Part shown: positions 25,868 to 33,328 of the stretch, piece by piece | Numbering within the stretch: position 1 is the stretch's first letter | Layout: the number at the start of each line of letters is the position of its first letter | Source: Planctomycetota bacterium | GTDB lineage: Bacteria > Planctomycetota > Planctomycetia > Gemmatales > Gemmataceae | Direction of reading: 5' to 3' | Length of the DNA: 34,147 nt | NCBI GenBank assembly: GCA_016872595.1 | Contig: VGZJ01000031.1 | Span: 1-34,147 of the forward strand | Program-made: the position numbers and the translations under genes | The notes under the pieces: generated by a model | What the model saw: the letters and a program-made list of their open reading frames with translations, nothing else | The model's database searches: none | Told to the model about the DNA's origin: nothing

Positions 25868-26254
25868 TCAGGTCGGGGTGAGCAGATCGGCGCGGCGCGC
25901 GGCGGGGAGCCGCGCGAACCCGGCGGCGGCGTCGTCGAGCGCCTCGTGGAGCGTCGTGCGCTCGTGGGCCACGTCGTTCTCGTTCTTGGGCATGCAGTCG
26001 TACCAATCATCAGGCACGGTCGCGGTGCGGATGTCGTCGGTCGGGTCGTAGTTCTTGGCCCAGCGCGAGTTGAGCCACACCCACGGGCCGCGCCCGCCCC
26101 ACAGGGCCGGCGCGCGGCGCAGCAGACCCATCGCGCGGTAACCCTCCGCGCGCGGGTCGCCGCGCTCCTCCAACCAGTCGGCGAACACCAGCCGCGTGTG
26201 CCAGTCCGATGGCTCCGCGGCCAGCGCGCGTTGGAAGTCGGCTTCGGTCGTCAT
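25868..26254 (-). CDS. TIGR02996-domain protein
   Basis: A 128-residue protein whose N-terminal half matches the TIGR02996 'repeat-companion' domain: FQRALAAEPSDWHTRLVFADWLEERGDPRAEGYR. This domain of unknown function is largely confined to planctomycetes and related bacteria, often beside leucine-rich or other repeat proteins. The C-terminal part (WVWLNSRWAKNYDPTDDIR and a helical end) is unassigned. The ATG is 4 bases after the stop of the thioredoxin-like gene on the same strand, so the two are very probably co-transcribed and translationally coupled. Confidence 0.85.
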   Translation of the reverse strand: MTTEADFQRALAAEPSDWHTRLVFADWLEERGDPRAEGYRAMGLLRRAPALWGGRGPWVWLNSRWAKNYDPTDDIRTATVPDDWYDCMPKNENDVAHERTTLHEALDDAAAGFARLPAARRADLLTPT

Positions 26255-26258
26255 CGGG

Positions 26259-28046
26259 TCAGCGGCCGGCGGGCACGTCGAACTGCGCCGCCTGCACGAT
26301 CTCCTTCGTCTTGTCGTTCTGCACGAGCGCGATCACCTTCAGGTCTTTCATCTCCATCGGCCGGTCGGCCTTCGGGAACGGGCGGGTCGCGGCGTAGTCG
26401 TCGAGGTACTTCGTCAGCGCCTTGCGCACGTCGCCGAGGTCGGCGCTGGCGGCGTGCTTGAAGGTCTTGTCCTTGACGGCGACGCCGTCCGCGCCGCCGG
26501 GCATCGCGCGCACCACGTGGTGGTGGAACCGGACGCGGTTGCTGCCGACGTAGCGCACGTTCTCTTCGACGACGAGGACGCGCAACTTGAGGTCCTCGCC
26601 GTCCGCGCCGGTCACCTCGAGGCCGATGTCGAGCTTGTCGCCGGCACGCGCGACCTTGCCGCTCACCTTCACGTCGGTCGTCTTTTCGAGGATCGGGTCG
26701 ATGACCTCGGCGTACTGCTTGAACTTGGCCTCGGACGCGCCCATCGCGCCGCCGCCGGACGCGGCGCGGGTGCCGTTGAAGAACGAACTCGGCGCGCTGG
26801 TGATGCCGTAGTACCGGCCGCGCGCGACGGTGTCGGGGTTGGTGAGCGGGTCCGGGCCGGGGATGTGGACGTGGTACTGGATCAGCACGAGCTCGCTCGG
26901 CTTGTAGGCCTTCAGCAGCCCGTCGAAGGCGACGTCGGCGGCGACGCACGGCGGGCACTGCGCGCCGGTGAACAGTTCGAGCACCGCGACCGTGTTCGCG
27001 CCGTTGGTCTTGCGGCCCGCGAACGCGGTCGGCTTGAACGGGGGCACGGCCTTGAGGTAGTCGGCGTCGAGGACCGATTCGAGCTTGGCGAGTTCGGCGC
27101 TCACCGCCTTCGCCGCGTCCGCTTTGCCGGCTTTCGCCAGCGCGTTCTGGTACGCGGTCAGCACGGTGACGCGCGCCCCGGCGGGGTCGTCGGGGCTCAG
27201 CTTCTTCGCGCTCGGCTCGACGGCCACGAGCGCGGCCGCTTCGAGACCGGCCCTCACCAGTTCGTCGGCGACCGGGGCGAGGGCCACGCCCCCGAACACC
27301 GGGCCGTAGGGGTCGGCGTGCTTCTGGGCGACCTTCACGAGGCTCTGGGCCTCCTCCGCGGTCATCTTGAGCACGGTCGCGTTGCGGAGCAGGCCGACCG
27401 CGGCGTCGTACGCGGCGGGGAAGTGCGGGTGCTTCTCGACCACTTCGCGGTACAGGCCCGGCACCTTCTCGTCGGCCTCTTTGCGCGCCGCCGTCAGGTC
27501 CTTGATCAGTTCCGCGCGCTTGGTCGCGTCCTTCTCGAGTTGAACCTTGTTTTGCGCCAGTAGCACCTTCGTGTTGAACTGCGCGGCCTTCGCCATCGGC
27601 TCGACGAGCGGGTGGCGCGTGACCAGCTCGTCCTTCTCGAGCGCGTCCTTCGTGGTGGCGACGAGCTTCGCGCGGGTGCGGGCGGTGTCGGTGCCGATGC
27701 TCCCGGCGACGAGCTTCGCGTCGGTGCCGCGGACGCCGACGAACGCGATCTCGCTCGTCAAGGTCTGCTTGCCGACGGTGCGGGTCTGCTTCACCGTGAG
27801 GACCACGCGGGTATCGGTCACGCGGAAGTCGGTGACTTTGGCCTGCACGTTCTCCGGCGCGAAGGCGACGCTCGCGGTCGGCTTGCCGTCCTTCGTTTCG
27901 ACCTTCACGACGCACACGGTCGAATCCGCGGCGGCGGTGCTGGTGACGAGTTGCCAGTTGCCCGACAGGTCGTCGGCGGCTCGGGTGGGGGTGATGAGCG
28001 CGGCCAGCACGAGGCCGGCGAGCGCGAACGGGACGCGGCGCAGCAT
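26259..28046 (-). CDS. Large secreted thioredoxin-like protein
   Basis: A 595-residue exported protein with a signal peptide (1-23, ending TRAAD). Residues about 25-130 form a beta-rich domain, about 130-330 are helical, and about 345-455 form a thioredoxin-like domain with FTGAQCPPCVAADVAF, in which Cys364 and Cys367 make a CxxC (CPPC) redox site, followed by a cis-Pro-like segment ITSAPSSFFNG. The C-terminal 130 residues form another beta domain (KVSGKVARAGDKLDIGLEV, LKLRVLVVEENV). Likely a periplasmic thiol-disulfide oxidoreductase or reductant carrier; the target is unknown. It is followed by the TIGR02996 gene with a 4-base gap, and preceded by the cysteine desulfurase-like gene about 90 bases upstream on the same strand. 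Confidence 0.82.
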   Translation of the reverse strand: MLRRVPFALAGLVLAALITPTRAADDLSGNWQLVTSTAAADSTVCVVKVETKDGKPTASVAFAPENVQAKVTDFRVTDTRVVLTVKQTRTVGKQTLTSEIAFVGVRGTDAKLVAGSIGTDTARTRAKLVATTKDALEKDELVTRHPLVEPMAKAAQFNTKVLLAQNKVQLEKDATKRAELIKDLTAARKEADEKVPGLYREVVEKHPHFPAAYDAAVGLLRNATVLKMTAEEAQSLVKVAQKHADPYGPVFGGVALAPVADELVRAGLEAAALVAVEPSAKKLSPDDPAGARVTVLTAYQNALAKAGKADAAKAVSAELAKLESVLDADYLKAVPPFKPTAFAGRKTNGANTVAVLELFTGAQCPPCVAADVAFDGLLKAYKPSELVLIQYHVHIPGPDPLTNPDTVARGRYYGITSAPSSFFNGTRAASGGGAMGASEAKFKQYAEVIDPILEKTTDVKVSGKVARAGDKLDIGLEVTGADGEDLKLRVLVVEENVRYVGSNRVRFHHHVVRAMPGGADGVAVKDKTFKHAASADLGDVRKALTKYLDDYAATRPFPKADRPMEMKDLKVIALVQNDKTKEIVQAAQFDVPAGR

Positions 28047-28139: not shown

Positions 28140-29282
28140 TTACACGCTGGTGATCTGCTTGAGTGCGTCGATGAGGTGATCGATGTCGGCTTCGGTATTG
28201 AACGGGCCGGGGCTGACGCGCAGCAGACCGTCCGGGGCCGTGCCGCGCGCCTTGTGGACGTAGGGCGCGCAGTGCAGGCCGGGCCGCACGGCGATGTCGA
28301 ACGACTGGTCGAGGATGGCGGCGAGGTCCGGCGCGGGCAGCGCCTCGCAGCGGAAGCTGAGCGTTCCGACGCGCCGGGCGTTGTCGGCGTGACCGAAGAA
28401 CTCGAAGCCCGGCAGCTCCGCGAGCGCGCCGCGCAGCCGGTCGCACAGTTCCAGTTCGTGCTTCAAGATGCTCGCGACACCGCGCTCTTCGACGAAGTCG
28501 AGGCCGGCGACGAGGCCGACGACGCCGAGCACGTTGGGGGTGCCGCCTTCGAGGTGGTGCGGGAAGTCGGCGGGTTGGGTGGGCGTGAGCGAGTCGCCGC
28601 CGGTGCCGCCCTCGCGCCACGGGCGCACGGTCGCGCGCGGGCCGACGTACAGCGCCCCGGTCCCGGTCGGGCCGAACAGCGACTTGTGCCCCGGCAGCGC
28701 GAGCAGGTCGATGCACGCCGCTTGCACGTCGATGGGCAGCACACCGGCGGTCTGCGCGGCGTCCACGAGGAACAGCAGGTCGCGCGCGCGCACGATCCGG
28801 CCGATCTCCGCGACCGGCTGCACGGTGCCGAGCACGTTGCTGGCGTGCGTGAGCGCGACCAGTTTGGTCTTCGGGGTGAGCGCGGCGCGGACGGCGTCGG
28901 GATCGATGGTGCCGCCGGCGTCGGCCGCGACGCGCGTGAGTGTGATGCGCCCGGCTTCGGCGAGCGCCACGAGCGGGCGCGACACGCTGTTGTGTTCGAG
29001 GTCCGACGTGACGACGTGGTCGCCGTCGTTGAGCGCGCCCTTGAACGCCATGTTGAGGGCGTCGGTGCAGTTGAGCGTGAACGCCCAGCGGTCCGGGTTG
29101 CGGCCGTTGAAGAACCGGTTGAGGCGGTGCCGCGCGTCGGCGAGCGCGTGTTCGGAGGCCAGCGCCATGCGGTGCCCGGAGCGCCCGGGGTTGGCGAGGT
29201 CGTGGCGCGCGAAGCGGTCCATCGTGGCGTACACGCCTTCCGGCTTGGGGAAGCTGGTCGCCGCGTTATCGAGGTAGGTCAC
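28140..29282 (-). CDS. Cysteine desulfurase-like class V aminotransferase
   Basis: A 380-residue PLP enzyme of the NifS/SufS/CsdA group. It has DNAATSFPKP at the N-terminus, DLEHNSV with His97, the PLP-ring Asp174 (FLVDAAQTAG), the Schiff-base Lys200 (LPGHKSLFGPTGTG) and Cys338 in RPGLHCAPYVH, the position of the persulfide-forming Cys. It should take sulfur from cysteine, giving alanine and an enzyme persulfide. The GTG start overlaps the stop of the Uma2-fold gene by 4 bases (29279-29282), so translation is coupled. Its place at the end of the ThiF/MoaD operon suggests it supplies the sulfur for the carrier thiocarboxylate. Confidence 0.9.
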   Translation of the reverse strand: MTYLDNAATSFPKPEGVYATMDRFARHDLANPGRSGHRMALASEHALADARHRLNRFFNGRNPDRWAFTLNCTDALNMAFKGALNDGDHVVTSDLEHNSVSRPLVALAEAGRITLTRVAADAGGTIDPDAVRAALTPKTKLVALTHASNVLGTVQPVAEIGRIVRARDLLFLVDAAQTAGVLPIDVQAACIDLLALPGHKSLFGPTGTGALYVGPRATVRPWREGGTGGDSLTPTQPADFPHHLEGGTPNVLGVVGLVAGLDFVEERGVASILKHELELCDRLRGALAELPGFEFFGHADNARRVGTLSFRCEALPAPDLAAILDQSFDIAVRPGLHCAPYVHKARGTAPDGLLRVSPGPFNTEADIDHLIDALKQITSV

Positions 29283-29884
29283 GGGAGCAGTTCCTTCACG
29301 GCGATCACACCGAGTTGCTTACCGGCAACTACGACCGGCAAGCTGTCGCTGGGGCCGTAGTCCGTGCGGGTCTTGTACGCCGGGGCCTTCCCGCCGCGCG
29401 GGTCCGTGTACACTTCGACGCGATTCTCGCTCACGTTCACGATCCAGTACTGCGGCACCTTTGCCTCGGCGTACAGTTCCTGTTTCGTGCCACGGTCGTA
29501 GCCGAGCGACGAGTCGGACACTTCGACCACGAGCACCAAGTCTTTCGGGCCGGGGTGCAGGTCGGCGTACCGCACGTCCGGGCCGCGCGCGGCGAAGAAG
29601 TATGGTTGCGGCTGACTGTCGGAAAGCGTGATCGGGTCGTTCGACCCGAACACCCATTCCGGCGGGGAGAACAGCGGCATCAGGTTGCGCGCCACGCGGC
29701 GCGAAACGGACGAGTGCGGCGGGTTGGGCGGCATGATGGTAACGATCCGACCGCGAATGAGTTCGCAGCGATCCTCTTCGCGGAGGATGCCGGTCGCGAT
29801 CATACGGTGGTAGTCCGCGACGCTGAACAACCGGCTCGGCGGTTCTTCGCTCGGCGGGGGTGTCAAAGCAATTGCGGTTGTCAT
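29279..29884 (-). CDS. Uma2-family (DUF820) PD-(D/E)XK-fold protein
   Basis: A 201-residue member of the Uma2 family, which has a restriction-endonuclease-like fold and is expanded in cyanobacteria and planctomycetes; the function is unknown. The sequence shows FSVADYHRMIATGIL, CELIRGRIVTIMPP, ARGPDVRYADL (Asp of the core), LVLVVEVSDSSLGYDRG (Glu) and TKQELYAEAKVPQYWIVN (Lys), in the usual order. The frame is open upstream to 30232, but GGAG precedes ATG 29882-29884 and homology begins there. It lies between the E1-like gene (35-base gap) and the desulfurase gene (4-base overlap), so it is transcribed with a sulfur-transfer set to which it has no obvious biochemical link. Confidence 0.88.
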   Translation of the reverse strand: MTTAIALTPPPSEEPPSRLFSVADYHRMIATGILREEDRCELIRGRIVTIMPPNPPHSSVSRRVARNLMPLFSPPEWVFGSNDPITLSDSQPQPYFFAARGPDVRYADLHPGPKDLVLVVEVSDSSLGYDRGTKQELYAEAKVPQYWIVNVSENRVEVYTDPRGGKAPAYKTRTDYGPSDSLPVVVAGKQLGVIAVKELLP

Positions 29885-29919
29885 GAGTGGCTCCGTGCGG
29901 GTTGTTCCATCATACCGCG

Positions 29920-30975
29920 TCAGTGCCCGACGTACTTGGCGTACAGCGTGCGGGCCTTGTCCGGTTGGTCGGTGCCCTTGATGATCGCGCGGCCGTCCTC
30001 GAACACCGTGAACTCGTACGGGTCGCCGTTCTCCACCAACTGGAACTTCAGCAGGAACTTGTTGTAGCTCACTTCGCCCGACTGCTTCAGGACGGAGGCG
30101 AGGTACGCGAAGTCGAGTTTGCCCTTCGCGCGCTGGCTCACTTGCACCGCGTTTCGGCCGCACAACGAGGTGGTTTGCGTGCCGTGCGCGCCGTCGAGCC
30201 ACTCGAAGTTGCGCTTCGCGCAGCACGGACACTGCCCCTTGCGCCCGGCGAGCGGGGCCACCTTAACGCGGCGGTTGGTGTTCTCCCACACGTCCAGAAT
30301 CAGCAGTTCCTTGTTCACCGCGGCCTTGTTGCCGGAGAGCAGCTTGAGCGCTTCGGTGGCCTGATAGCTGGCAACGATGTTGACCGCGGGGGCGAGCACG
30401 CCGGCCGTTTCGCAGGTGCCCGTTTCGCCGGGCGCGGGCGCGGCCTCGAACACGCACCGCAGGCACGGGGTCTCGCCGGGGATGATCGTCATGGTCATGC
30501 CCTGACTGCCGACCGCGCCGCCGTATACCCACGGCTTGTTGTGCTTGAACGCTACGTCGTTGATGAGGTAGCGGATCTCGAAGTTGTCGCTGCCGTCGAG
30601 GATCAGGTCCGCGCCGGCGCAGAAGTCTTCGATGTTGGTGCGGTTGATGTCCGCGACGACCGGCTCGATTGTCACCGACGAGTTGATCTGCCGCAGTTTC
30701 ACCGCCGCGGCCTCGGCCTTCGGCAGGTTGTTCGTCACGTCCGACTCGTCGAACAGCACCTGCCGTTGGAGGTTCGACGGCTCGACGAAGTCGCGGTCGA
30801 CGACGCGCACGAAGCCGACGCCGGCGCGTACGAGCACGTTCGCGAGCACTGTGCCGAGCGCGCCGCACCCGCAGAGCGTGACGCGCGAGGCGAGCAACTT
30901 CTCTTGCCCGGCCTTGCCCATGCCGGGGAACCGCATCTGGCGGGAGTAGCGTTCGAGCGGGTTGGTGTCTGTCAT
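29920..30975 (-). CDS. ThiF/MoeB/HesA-type E1-like adenylyltransferase
   Basis: A 351-residue E1-like enzyme that adenylates the C-terminal Gly of a ubiquitin-fold sulfur carrier. ERYSRQMRFPGMG at the N-terminus, nucleotide loop GCGALG (36-41), VVDRDFVEPSNLQRQ (58-72), Asp130 in DGSDNFEIRYLIND, Cys188 in GTCETAGVLAP (the sulfur-transfer or thioester Cys position), and zinc ligands Cys171/Cys174 and Cys249/Cys252 are all present. The C-terminal 75 residues (LCGRNAVQVSQRAKG to YAKYVGH) form a small extra domain, not a rhodanese; it may bind the carrier. ATG 30975 lacks a strong ribosome-binding site. The natural partner is the MoaD-type protein encoded 700 bases upstream. Confidence 0.93.
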   Translation of the reverse strand: MTDTNPLERYSRQMRFPGMGKAGQEKLLASRVTLCGCGALGTVLANVLVRAGVGFVRVVDRDFVEPSNLQRQVLFDESDVTNNLPKAEAAAVKLRQINSSVTIEPVVADINRTNIEDFCAGADLILDGSDNFEIRYLINDVAFKHNKPWVYGGAVGSQGMTMTIIPGETPCLRCVFEAAPAPGETGTCETAGVLAPAVNIVASYQATEALKLLSGNKAAVNKELLILDVWENTNRRVKVAPLAGRKGQCPCCAKRNFEWLDGAHGTQTTSLCGRNAVQVSQRAKGKLDFAYLASVLKQSGEVSYNKFLLKFQLVENGDPYEFTVFEDGRAIIKGTDQPDKARTLYAKYVGH

Positions 30976-30981
30976 GGTGTT

Positions 30982-31072
30982 GGCGAGCGGGGGGCGTAAG
31001 CCCCCTGTTCGATGTGAGTGCGTGATTGGGTCGCTCTGCAGAACAGGGGGGCTTACGCCCCCCCCGCTCGCC
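30982..31072. repeat. Inverted pair of the GGGGGCTTACGCC repeat family inside the operon
   Basis: Units at 30982-31010 and 31041-31072 are near-perfect reverse complements, each a copy of the recurrent spacer unit. The pair touches the stop codon of the small helical protein (31073-31075) and ends 7 bases before the E1 start, so it forms a large hairpin in the middle of the operon and may lower or separate expression of the distal genes. Confidence 0.9.
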
Positions 31073-31408
31073 TCAAGCGCCGATACCGTTCTCTTTCAGG
31101 AAGTCTTGCAGGAAGCGGACGTGCTGCTTGGGCCAGTCCTCGGACTTGGCGAACCCGACGAGGGTAATGAAGTCCTCGCGCACGCGGCGCAGTTCGGCCC
31201 CGTTCAGGCGCTGCATGTAGCCGACGAGATACTCCATCGCTTCGTCGGCCACGGCCGGGTTCAGCACGGTGGCTTCGGACCCTTCGAGGAAGACGTAGGC
31301 GTGTAGGGCCGCGAGCAGCAGCGGGTGAACGCCCAACTCTTCGGGGATCAGCGGGAACACCGCCGCCCCGTCCGGCGTCTCTTCGGGCTTCGTCGCGTCC
31401 TCTGGCAT
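31073..31408 (-). CDS. Small helical protein of the sulfur-carrier operon
   Basis: A 111-residue protein with no recognised family. After a charged N-terminus (MPEDATKPEETPDGA) come helices: PEELGVHPLLLAALHAYVFLEG, VADEAMEYLVGYMQRLNG, and LRRVREDFITLVGFAKSEDW, ending HVRFLQDFLKENGIGA. It has no Cys, signal peptide or membrane segment. Its ATG directly follows the stop of the carrier-like gene (TGA then ATG, no gap), which strongly suggests coupled translation and a role with the carrier proteins, perhaps as an adaptor. That role is inference. Confidence 0.8.
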   Translation of the reverse strand: MPEDATKPEETPDGAAVFPLIPEELGVHPLLLAALHAYVFLEGSEATVLNPAVADEAMEYLVGYMQRLNGAELRRVREDFITLVGFAKSEDWPKQHVRFLQDFLKENGIGA

Positions 31409-31690
31409 TCAGCACCCGATAGCATTGACCAACAGAACTCGTTCATCTTCTCCGAGTACCAACTCCGGCGTGTAGCGGAGGTCCTCGCCGTCCACATCAC
31501 GATACAGATTGAACCAGTCTGCCCGGGGTTGCCCATCCACTTGTCGAAACCGCGTGTACAGCGATGGGTGCAGTTGCAACAACTCCTGAAGGAGCGCGGG
31601 CAGAACCCGGTTGAACACGCGACACTCAATGCTGCCCGGCGAGTTGCTCGTCGGGTCAACGAAGCACGTCGGTATCACCACGACGGGCAT
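31409..31690 (-). CDS. MoaD/ThiS-like protein ending in Ile-Gly-Cys
   Basis: A 93-residue protein that lines up by eye along its whole length with the MoaD-type protein encoded just before it: VVVIPTCFVDPT against IKVQIPTPMRDQ, LLQELLQLHPSLYTRF against ALDDLLRQHPGLTAKL, and FNLYRDVDGEDLRY against INVFLNDEDIRY, then a final strand LGEDERVLLVNAIGC. I therefore read it as a diverged beta-grasp (ubiquitin-fold) paralogue. It lacks the C-terminal Gly-Gly needed for adenylation and ends in Ile-Gly-Cys. It may be a non-conjugating partner, a regulator, or a carrier using the terminal Cys. Only 3 bases separate it from the MoaD stop. Confidence 0.7.
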   Translation of the reverse strand: MPVVVIPTCFVDPTSNSPGSIECRVFNRVLPALLQELLQLHPSLYTRFRQVDGQPRADWFNLYRDVDGEDLRYTPELVLGEDERVLLVNAIGC

Positions 31691-31693
31691 TGC

Positions 31694-31966
31694 TCACCCA
31701 CCTGCCACAGCGGGAATCAGCGCCAGAATCACCCCGTCTGTGACCTTCGTGTCCATCTCGTCGAGGTAGCGGATGTCCTCGTCGTTGAGGAACACGTTGA
31801 TGTACGGCCGCAGCTTGCCGTTGTCGAACAGCTTCGCGGTGAGGCCGGGGTGCTGGCGCAGCAGGTCGTCGAGCGCGGCCTTTACGGTGCTGCCGGTCAC
31901 ATCGACTTCCGCCTTGCCGCCGGCCTGATCGCGCATCGGCGTGGGAATCTGAACTTTGATTGCCAT
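31694..31966 (-). CDS. MoaD/ThiS-family sulfur carrier protein with C-terminal Gly-Gly
   Basis: A 90-residue beta-grasp protein: MAIKVQIPTPMRDQAGGKAE, STVKAALDDLLRQHPGL, YINVFLNDEDIRYLD and a final strand ending IPAVAGG. The exposed Gly-Gly is what ThiF/MoeB-type enzymes adenylate before sulfur is added as a thiocarboxylate. No extra residues follow, so no protease is needed to mature it (unlike CysO-type carriers that need Mec+/JAMM processing). ATG 31964-31966 is preceded by GAGGGG. It sits between the threonine-synthase-fold gene and its own paralogue, within the operon that also holds the E1 enzyme. It is unlikely to be the molybdopterin MoaD because no moaE is present. Confidence 0.92.
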   Translation of the reverse strand: MAIKVQIPTPMRDQAGGKAEVDVTGSTVKAALDDLLRQHPGLTAKLFDNGKLRPYINVFLNDEDIRYLDEMDTKVTDGVILALIPAVAGG

Positions 31967-31977
31967 ATGCCCCTCGT

Positions 31978-32050
31978 GGCGAACGGCCGGTGTCAGCCGG
32001 CCGGTGCGTCCGCGTTGCTCCCACCGGCCGGCTGACACCGGCCGTTCGCC
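31978..32050. repeat. 29-bp perfect inverted repeat between thrC-like and moaD-like genes
   Basis: Arms 31978-32006 and 32022-32050 are perfect reverse complements (GGCGAACGGCCGG type). The right arm ends on the first base of the upstream gene's stop codon, and the left arm abuts the ribosome-binding site of the MoaD gene. Confidence 0.95.
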
Positions 32051-33315
32051 TACACCAGCGCCGGTTCCGCCGCGGCTAGCCCCGCGAGCGCGTCGAAGTC
32101 GGCCAGCGCGGGCTTGATCGTCGCGGGTTCGTCCAGCGCCTCGAACACGCAGTCCTGCGTCTTCAGACCGTTGCCGGTCACGCAGATGACGATCTCTTCG
32201 TTGCGCGGGATGCGGCCCTGCTCGATCAGCTTCTTGGCGACCGCGACCGTGGTTCCGCCGGCCGTTTCGCCGAAGATGCCTTCGGTCTTCGCCAGTAGTT
32301 GCATCGCCTCCACGATCTCGGCGTCGGTCACGTCCTCGGCCCAACCGCCGCTGTTCTTGATGAGCTGCGCCGCGAAGTACCCGTCGGCCGGGTCGCCGAT
32401 GGCGAGGCTCTTGCAGATCGTGTTCGGCGTCTTGATCGGCTTGTGCCGCTCGCGATTGCTCTTCACACAGTCCGCGATCGGGTTGCAGCCCGTGGCCTGC
32501 GCGCCGTACATCTTCGTCGTCACCTCTTGATCGACCAACCCCAGCCGGCTCAGTTCGGTGAACGCCTTGTGAATCTTGCCGATGAGCGCGCCGCCGGCCA
32601 TCGGGCAGACGACGTGTTGCGGGAACCGCCAGCCGAGGTCTTCGGCGATCTCGAAACCCACGGTCTTCGAGCCTTCGGCGTAGAACGGGCGCAGGTTCAC
32701 GTTCACGAAGCCCCAGCCGTACTTCATCACGATCTGGGTGCAGAGCCGGTTCACCTGATCGTAGGTGCCGGACACCTTCACGACCTTCGCGCCGTACACC
32801 GCGGTGCCGTAAATCTTCGTCTTCTCAAGGTCCGCGGGGACGAGGATGACGGTGTCGAGGCCGGCGCTCGCGCCGAGCGCCGCGACGCTGTTGGCGAGGT
32901 TCCCGGTGCTGGCGCAGCCGACCATCTTCATGCCCAGCTCGCGCGCCTTCGACAGCGCGACGGACACCACGCGATCCTTGAACGACAGCGTCGGGAAGTT
33001 AACGGCGTCGTTTTTGATCCAGAGGCGCTCGACGCCGAGCGCGTCGGCGAGGCGATCCGCGCGCACGAGCGGCGTGCCACCGACTTGCGGGCCGACGGTC
33101 GGCTCGCCGTCGAGCGGGAGCAGTTCCTTGTACCGCCACATGTTCCGCGGGCGTGCTTGGAACTTGGCGCGGCTCACGGTGGGCTTGATCTTGTCGTAGT
33201 CGTATGCGACTTCGAGCGGCCCGCTGTCATCCGGGCAGAAGAAGTTCGCGGCCTTCGGGTACATCTTGCCGCACACGCGGCACTTCAGACCCAGCACGGC
33301 GTCGTTACTCGGCAC
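32050..33315 (-). CDS. thrC: Threonine-synthase-fold PLP enzyme (fold type II), SAM-riboswitch controlled
   Basis: A 421-residue fold-type II PLP enzyme that best matches threonine synthase, which converts O-phosphohomoserine to threonine. It has an N-terminal zinc-ribbon (LKCRVCGKMYP ... FFCPDD; Cys12, Cys15, Cys27), GGTPLVRADRLADALG, the PLP lysine Lys113 in PTLSFKDRVV, CASTGNLANSVAALGA for phosphate/cofactor binding, and the C-terminal GETAGGTTVAVAKKL and CVTGNGLKTQ. The GTG at 33324 overlaps AGGGG, whereas GTG 33315 lies 8 bases after it, so I use 33315. A SAM-I riboswitch in the leader and the sulfur-carrier genes downstream suggest the true product could be homocysteine (O-phosphohomoserine plus carrier thiocarboxylate). 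Ordinary threonine synthesis remains the default reading. Confidence 0.9.
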   Translation of the reverse strand: MPSNDAVLGLKCRVCGKMYPKAANFFCPDDSGPLEVAYDYDKIKPTVSRAKFQARPRNMWRYKELLPLDGEPTVGPQVGGTPLVRADRLADALGVERLWIKNDAVNFPTLSFKDRVVSVALSKARELGMKMVGCASTGNLANSVAALGASAGLDTVILVPADLEKTKIYGTAVYGAKVVKVSGTYDQVNRLCTQIVMKYGWGFVNVNLRPFYAEGSKTVGFEIAEDLGWRFPQHVVCPMAGGALIGKIHKAFTELSRLGLVDQEVTTKMYGAQATGCNPIADCVKSNRERHKPIKTPNTICKSLAIGDPADGYFAAQLIKNSGGWAEDVTDAEIVEAMQLLAKTEGIFGETAGGTTVAVAKKLIEQGRIPRNEEIVICVTGNGLKTQDCVFEALDEPATIKPALADFDALAGLAAAEPALV

Positions 33316-33323
33316 GGTCGGCA

Positions 33324-33328
33324 CCCCT
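33324..33328 (-). promoter_or_regulatory. Ribosome-binding site that sets the thrC-like start
   Basis: AGGGG on the minus strand, 8 bases before GTG 33315. It overlaps the alternative GTG at 33324, which makes that one unlikely. Confidence 0.65.

What the first reader, a model, noticed from the sequence alone, without database searches (positions are those of the whole stretch)
31409..31690. Second ubiquitin-fold carrier-like protein without Gly-Gly, ending Ile-Gly-Cys
It aligns by eye with the adjacent MoaD-type protein over nearly its full length but has lost the diglycine that defines a functional carrier. A conserved C-terminal Cys could hold a persulfide or form a disulfide, or the protein may be a decoy or scaffold for the E1 or PLP enzyme. 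A tandem pair of one active and one altered carrier in a single operon is unusual.
Basis: partly seen in the sequence, partly recalled or inferred. Interest (0 to 1): 0.75.

Follow-up and report, generated by a model that had tools for sequence, protein, structure and literature searches.

The report
Diglycine-less sulfur-carrier twin in Gemmata
Some Gemmata bacteria carry, next to an ordinary ubiquitin-like sulfur-carrier gene, a fast-evolving second copy that keeps the fold but lacks the two glycines needed to carry sulfur, usually ending in Gly-Cys instead, so it probably assists or regulates the pathway rather than carrying sulfur itself.

Summary
The 93-residue protein at 31690-31409 (minus strand) is a real paralogue of the adjacent SAMP1/CysO-type carrier: BLASTP 31% identity over 74 residues, profile-profile E 3e-12, predicted beta-grasp fold with SAMP1 and CysO as best solved matches. 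It lacks Gly-Gly. Six of 19 genomes of the genus and 7 of 95 of the family have it, each time between the carrier gene and a conserved 111-aa gene. A sample of 392 phylum genomes gave no other clear orthologue. Orthologues are only 30-57% identical (96% in one close pair), but the last 18 columns have no gap, the penultimate Gly is invariant, and the end is Gly-Cys in 6 of 7 and Gly-Asp in one. So the Cys is favoured but not required, which weakens a persulfide role. The gene shows purifying selection and patchy presence. Best reading: a carrier-derived accessory protein that docks like the carrier but is not thiocarboxylated. The mechanism is inferred, not shown. The nearest precedent seen is a haloarchaeal beta-grasp family ending Cys-Cys.

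The parts
31409..31690 (-). Diglycine-less carrier paralogue (P0001, 93 aa, ends AIGC), the finding
31694..31966 (-). SAMP1/CysO-type sulfur carrier (P0002, 90 aa, ends AVAGG)
   Evidence: NCBIfam SAMP1 64.8 bits over cut-off 60, Pfam ThiS 47.7 bits over cut-off 22.5; a profile of 12 carriers hits solved CysO-type chains 4n6e and 3dwg at E 3.5e-29 and 1.8e-28
31073..31408 (-). Conserved 111-aa protein P0003; no family match over a curated cut-off; predicted four-helix protein
   Evidence: 18 of 19 genus genomes
29920..30975 (-). E1-like adenylyltransferase of the MoeB/ThiF type (P0004) with a C-terminal extension and no Pfam rhodanese match
   Evidence: Pfam ThiF 256.3 bits; best NCBIfam PRK12475, 380 bits, below its cut-off of 510
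32050..33324 (-). ThrC-like PLP enzyme (P0005)
   Evidence: TIGR00260 286.8 bits over cut-off 167.1; solved threonine synthases; one of three strong ThrC-like matches in the genome
28140..29282 (-). Cysteine desulfurase family protein (P0006), possible sulfur source
   Evidence: TIGR01977 402.5 bits over cut-off 377

Best explanation
The protein is derived from a copy of the adjacent CysO/SAMP1-type carrier and became a non-carrying accessory subunit. It keeps the beta-grasp body and a stretch (EDLRY here; Leu-Arg invariant, flanks vary among orthologues) that corresponds to the carrier's conserved EDIRY, so it probably still docks where the carrier docks: on the E1-like enzyme, on the ThrC-like PLP enzyme, or on the carrier itself. 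Its tail is about one residue shorter and ends Gly-Cys or Gly-Asp, so the E1 should not be able to adenylate and thiocarboxylate it as it does the carrier. It would then tune the sulfur flow of the operon by competing or pairing with the real carrier, with the terminal Cys as an optional thiol. Shown: homology, fold prediction, absent diglycine, operon position, signs of purifying selection, constrained tail. Inferred: duplication of this very neighbour, docking partners, inability to be activated, regulatory role.
For: Homology to the carrier; beta-grasp model, pLDDT 85.4, pTM 0.76, best solved matches SAMP1 3po0 E 1.3e-4 and CysO 3dwg E 1.5e-3. Diglycine absent in 7 of 7 orthologues, while in 20 of 21 other match loci read out the carrier frame ends in GG (the script looked for frames ending in G or in G plus G, C, A or D, and extracted none from L053). 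In all 7 it lies between carrier and P0003, with 3 nt between carrier stop and its start in 6 of 7 and 2 nt in G005. Purifying selection in the closest pair: 4 amino-acid changes against 8.5 expected for 12 substitutions, P 0.0035. Tail: no gap in the last 18 columns, Gly92 invariant. Patchy presence and faster change (30-57% identity against 71-90% for the carrier, leaving out the close pair G008/G010) fit an accessory, dispensable role.
Against: No interaction was tested. No column of carrier, P0003, E1 or ThrC separates genomes with and without the gene at the thresholds used, so no partner shows co-adaptation. The operon accepts unrelated inserts at several junctions, so position alone does not prove function within the pathway. 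Family-specific invariants (R24, W59, F60, R64, P75) could mark an unrelated binding role. The docking stretch is not fully conserved: EDLRY, EDLRF, ESLRY, DDLRY (twice), EDLRG, YDLRY.
Confidence: 0.42

Rival explanations
1. The terminal Cys carries sulfur as a persulfide, or takes sulfur from the carrier thiocarboxylate or the cysteine desulfurase, making the protein a thiol-based relay in place of a thiocarboxylate carrier.
For: Cys at the very end in 6 of 7 orthologues whose bodies are mostly 30-57% identical; a cysteine desulfurase family gene follows the E1 gene; a haloarchaeal beta-grasp family with C-terminal Cys-Cys is on record (PMC2948915 section 6).
Against: One orthologue, in the single-contig genome G002, ends Gly-Asp with an intact frame and cannot form a persulfide there. 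Two of the six Cys cases are near-identical.
Confidence: 0.2
2. It is a single-Gly carrier made with a one-residue cap (Cys or Asp) that a protease or carboxypeptidase removes before activation, as recalled (no call) for HcyS/HcyD of Wolinella and for the Ser-Cys end of pro-Ufm1.
For: Gly92 invariant while the last residue may be Cys or Asp; fixed tail length. A Prok-JAB gene exists in the genome.
Against: No protease among the operon genes that could be named; the one Prok-JAB match is on another contig. Removing the cap leaves -Ile-Gly, about two residues shorter than the carrier's -Val-Ala-Gly-Gly.
Confidence: 0.1
3. A duplicated carrier copy in slow decay, kept by chance in a minority of species.
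For: Patchy: 5 changes on a 24-locus tree, 4 forced, not clearly clustered (69 of 500 shuffles as low); fast evolution; lower GC3 than its neighbours in all 7.
Against: Seven intact frames; no broken copy noticed in the loci read. dN below dS in all 21 pairs (most dS values near saturation); P 0.0035 for constraint in the closest pair; invariant residues and tail length.
Confidence: 0.13
4. The beta-grasp fold was recruited for an unrelated binding role (a new partner through the family's own conserved Arg/Trp positions); the operon position is historical.
For: Invariants R24, W59, F60, R64 and P75 have no conserved counterpart of the same residue in the carriers.
Against: Linkage to the carrier operon in all 7 genomes.
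Confidence: 0.15

Closest known systems
CysO (Mycobacterium, Amycolatopsis) and SAMP1 (Haloferax) type sulfur carriers
   Same: Beta-grasp fold; homologous to the adjacent carrier, itself a clear CysO/SAMP1 relative; operon with a PLP enzyme and an E1-like enzyme, comparable to the cysteine-synthase operons described in PMC1779556 (passages)
   Different: No Gly-Gly; tail about one residue shorter, ending Gly-Cys or Gly-Asp; no Pfam or NCBIfam carrier model matches; the PLP enzyme is ThrC-like, and the genome's only Prok-JAB match lies elsewhere
Haloarchaeal arCOG00539, beta-grasp proteins with C-terminal Cys-Cys (PMC2948915, section 6 read)
   Same: Beta-grasp protein with Cys in place of the diglycine
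   Different: Archaeal, Cys-Cys rather than Gly-Cys; not compared by sequence here
Sulfur carriers made with extra C-terminal residues (HcyS, QbsE) and pro-Ufm1 (all recalled, no call)
   Same: A residue after the terminal Gly
   Different: Those keep the activated Gly or Gly-Gly after processing by a protease; no protease was identified in this operon

Membership tests
ThiS/MoaD/CysO sulfur carriers | Beta-grasp fold | tested here: met
   AF2 model pLDDT 85.4, pTM 0.76; Foldseek best 3po0 SAMP1 E 1.3e-4 (the only match at E up to 0.001; TM 0.57/0.59, rmsd 4.8), 3dwg CysO 1.5e-3; VIA-align best Z 8.2, most listed rows 7-8 against ubiquitin-like and FERM chains, a middling level
ThiS/MoaD/CysO sulfur carriers | C-terminal Gly-Gly | tested here: not met
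   7 of 7 orthologues end Gly-Cys or Gly-Asp
ThiS/MoaD/CysO sulfur carriers | Match to the curated family model | tested here: not met
   No ThiS, Urm1, MoaD or SAMP1 match at E up to 1 for the window protein
ThiS/MoaD/CysO sulfur carriers | Adenylated and thiocarboxylated by an E1-like enzyme | not testable with these tools
   Needs biochemistry; an E1-like gene is in the operon
Haloarchaeal arCOG00539 (C-terminal CC) | C-terminal Cys-Cys | tested here: not met
   Ends Gly-Cys or Gly-Asp; sequence relation not tested
Capped carriers (HcyS-like) | Dedicated protease in the operon | tested here: inconclusive
   Operon genes named by family scan: ThrC-like, carrier, E1, desulfurase. Only Prok-JAB was searched genome-wide, in the window's genome; its one match is on contig C46. 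P0003 has no assigned family.

The most novel reading that the evidence does not exclude
The protein is an encoded stand-in for the carrier-cysteine product: a beta-grasp body ending in Gly-Cys that mimics the carrier-Cys adduct which a CysO-type pathway makes, and so signals or limits product formation by sitting on the ThrC-like enzyme. This would be a pseudo-carrier that regulates a thiocarboxylate pathway through its terminus. The shorter tail and the Gly-Asp orthologue speak against it but do not exclude it.
Probability: 0.08. Interest if true: 0.8.

Novelty: new variant of a known kind. Interest (0 to 1): 0.42.

Why it matters
Ubiquitin-like carriers are defined by the terminal glycine that E1 enzymes activate. 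A selected, operon-linked copy that lacks the diglycine would be a bacterial 'pseudo-ubiquitin', like pseudokinases among kinases. It offers a simple test system for what the carrier body does apart from carrying sulfur, and for what a ThrC-like enzyme does with a CysO-type carrier.

Tried and rejected
Pfam and NCBIfam (E up to 1), PADLOC (E up to 0.01) and PHROGs (E up to 0.1) gave no carrier family for the protein; the one Pfam hit, KRAP_IP3R_bind (E 0.0046, 17.4 bits against a cut-off of 27), is taken as chance. PADLOC matched the E1-like neighbour to parts of defence E1-E2 models (best E 1.5e-17, residues 27-147 only); this is read as the shared E1 domain, not as a defence system. A profile search of solved-structure sequences with the 7 orthologues gave nothing at E up to 1. 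Columns of the neighbours that track presence of the gene: none. P0003 was modelled to see whether it looks like a protease or known partner; the model is moderate (pLDDT 74.7, four helices) and its best solved match had E 1.8. The two extra phylum hits (L053, L054) are not counted as orthologues: E 2.3e-5 and 3.5e-5, L054 holds a carrier ending AIAGG, L053 was not resolved. The phylum search scored at most 13 first-look candidates per genome in the rows shown, so a very diverged orthologue could be missed. Rejected: that the window's carrier is the molybdopterin or thiamine one. Of four ThiS-domain matches in the genome, C26 lies beside a MoaE-like and a MoaA-like frame and C398 is a ThiS-ThiG-like fusion (those neighbours named by eye, not by a family scan). 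Literature: ten searches. No title or abstract start in those listings shows a bacterial carrier paralogue ending Gly-Cys; this rests on an open-access library only.

Full report
What is there. The frame at 31690-31409 (minus strand) encodes 93 aa ending AIGC. It lies in a run of minus-strand genes: ThrC-like enzyme (33324-32050), carrier (31966-31694, ends AVAGG), this gene, a 111-aa protein (31408-31073), an E1-like enzyme (30975-29920), then, after another frame, a cysteine desulfurase family protein (29282-28140). The carrier passes the SAMP1 cut-off, and a profile of 12 such carriers finds two solved CysO-type proteins at E 3.5e-29 and 1.8e-28.

Homology. The pair gives BLASTP E 5e-7, 31% over 74 aa. 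A profile of 6 orthologues (A1) finds carrier genes in genomes of the family at E 1.4e-5 to 0.009. Profile against profile, 7 orthologues with 12 carriers, gives probability 97.6, E 3.1e-12. In the window's own genome the carrier next door was the second-best match to the single sequence, at a weak E of 0.12. The predicted structure is a beta-grasp; best solved match SAMP1 (E 1.3e-4), then SAMP1 and CysO chains at E 1.3e-3 to 4.7e-3. The structural re-alignment gives a best Z of 8.2 and mostly 7-8, with ISG15, kindlin FERM, MoaD-related 1v8c and SAMP1 tied, so it supports the fold but not a particular family.

Distribution. 6 of 19 genomes of the genus and 7 of 95 of the family have an orthologue (E 3.5e-33 or better; next best match 1.4e-5). 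In 392 phylum genomes only the window's own matched clearly; two other hits were E 2.3e-5 and 3.5e-5 (at most 13 candidates scored per genome in the rows shown). A scan of named genomes, with patterns from four of the orthologues, gave three: Gemmata sp. IIL30, Gemmata sp. Bin_69 and Gemmataceae RYN_437. In all 7 the gene lies between carrier and P0003. P0003 is in 18 of 19 genus genomes. Of the 12 of these without the gene, 11 have carrier and P0003 next to each other and one (G016) has a membrane-protein frame between them. On a 24-locus tree the presence pattern needs 5 changes, 4 forced by well-supported branches; shuffled labels need 6.3 on average and 69 of 500 do as well, so presence is not clearly clustered. 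The shared junction, with 3 nt after the carrier stop in 6 of 7, fits one old origin and repeated loss better than repeated gain; this is inference.

Tail. C-termini are AIGC (window), AVGC, QLGC, QLGC, MVGC, LIGC and AVGD. The last 18 alignment columns have no gap; Gly92 is invariant. In the profile alignment Ile91 pairs with Val87 of the carrier, leaving GC against AGG, so the tail is about one residue shorter. The Cys codons are TGC or TGT and the Asp codon is GAT. Constraint is therefore on Gly and on length, with a strong but not absolute preference for Cys.

Selection. Orthologues are 30-57% identical, against 71-90% for the carrier in the same genomes (the close pair G008/G010 is 96% and 98%). 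dN is below dS in all 21 pairs, though most dS values are near saturation. In the close pair, 12 substitutions gave 4 amino-acid changes against a neutral mean of 8.5 (P 0.0035). GC3 is lower than in carrier, P0003 and E1 in each of the 7 genomes (0.59-0.75 against 0.70-0.98 overall). It looks like a real, selected, but fast-changing and weakly codon-adapted gene.

Pathway. The genome has three strong ThrC-like matches, two over the family cut-off, plus three weak ones, so the window copy need not be the threonine synthase. It has four ThiS-domain matches, with likely Moco and thiamine carriers elsewhere (by eye). A CysO-like use of the carrier by the ThrC-like enzyme, to make cysteine, homocysteine or a related thiol, is plausible but untested. 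CysM joins O-phosphoserine to CysO thiocarboxylate and Mec hydrolyses the CysO-cysteine adduct (PMC3227635, passages). Operons of ThiS/MoaD, E1, JAB and cysteine synthase are described in PMC1779556 (passages). Here the PLP enzyme is ThrC-like, and the genome's one Prok-JAB match is on another contig. The ThrC-like gene stays upstream of the carrier in G008 and G012, where another gene lies between the two.

Reading. The simplest account is an accessory pseudo-carrier. A pure persulfide role is weakened by the Gly-Asp orthologue, a capped carrier by the lack of an identified protease, and decay by the signs of constraint. No co-adapting column was found in neighbours, so partners are not shown.

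Known or new. The nearest printed precedent seen is a haloarchaeal beta-grasp family with C-terminal Cys-Cys (PMC2948915, section 6). That makes this a new variant of a known kind, found only in Gemmataceae in what was searched.

Noticed in passing
31073-31408: 111-aa protein present in 18 of 19 genus genomes, highly conserved (mean column identity 76% in 15 sequences), no family, four predicted helices: an unassigned member of the carrier operon.
   Followed up: partly
31978-32050 and 30989-31063: Perfect inverted repeats: 29-bp arms between the ThrC-like and carrier genes, and 17-bp arms between P0003 and the E1 gene. A palindrome also lies between carrier and P0003 in G003 (by eye). May be small repeat elements.
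   Followed up: partly
L012:215-1501; L065:157-1554; L035 between carrier and P0003: Unrelated frames (a membrane protein resembling a glycosyltransferase, by eye; a 326-aa frame in L035) inserted at different junctions of the same operon in different genomes.
   Followed up: partly
window 32050-33324; G000:C212 and C81: Three strong ThrC-like matches in one genome; which one is the threonine synthase is open.
   Followed up: no
29279-30043: Frame between E1 and desulfurase that looks like a Uma2-type protein (recalled); NCBIfam gave no match at E up to 1e-5.
   Followed up: no
25868-26254: TIGR02996 domain protein, 45.2 bits over cut-off 29.05.
   Followed up: no
26259-28046: 595-aa protein with a partial, sub-cut-off match to an Omp28-related selenoprotein domain model (56.7 against 200 bits).
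   Followed up: no
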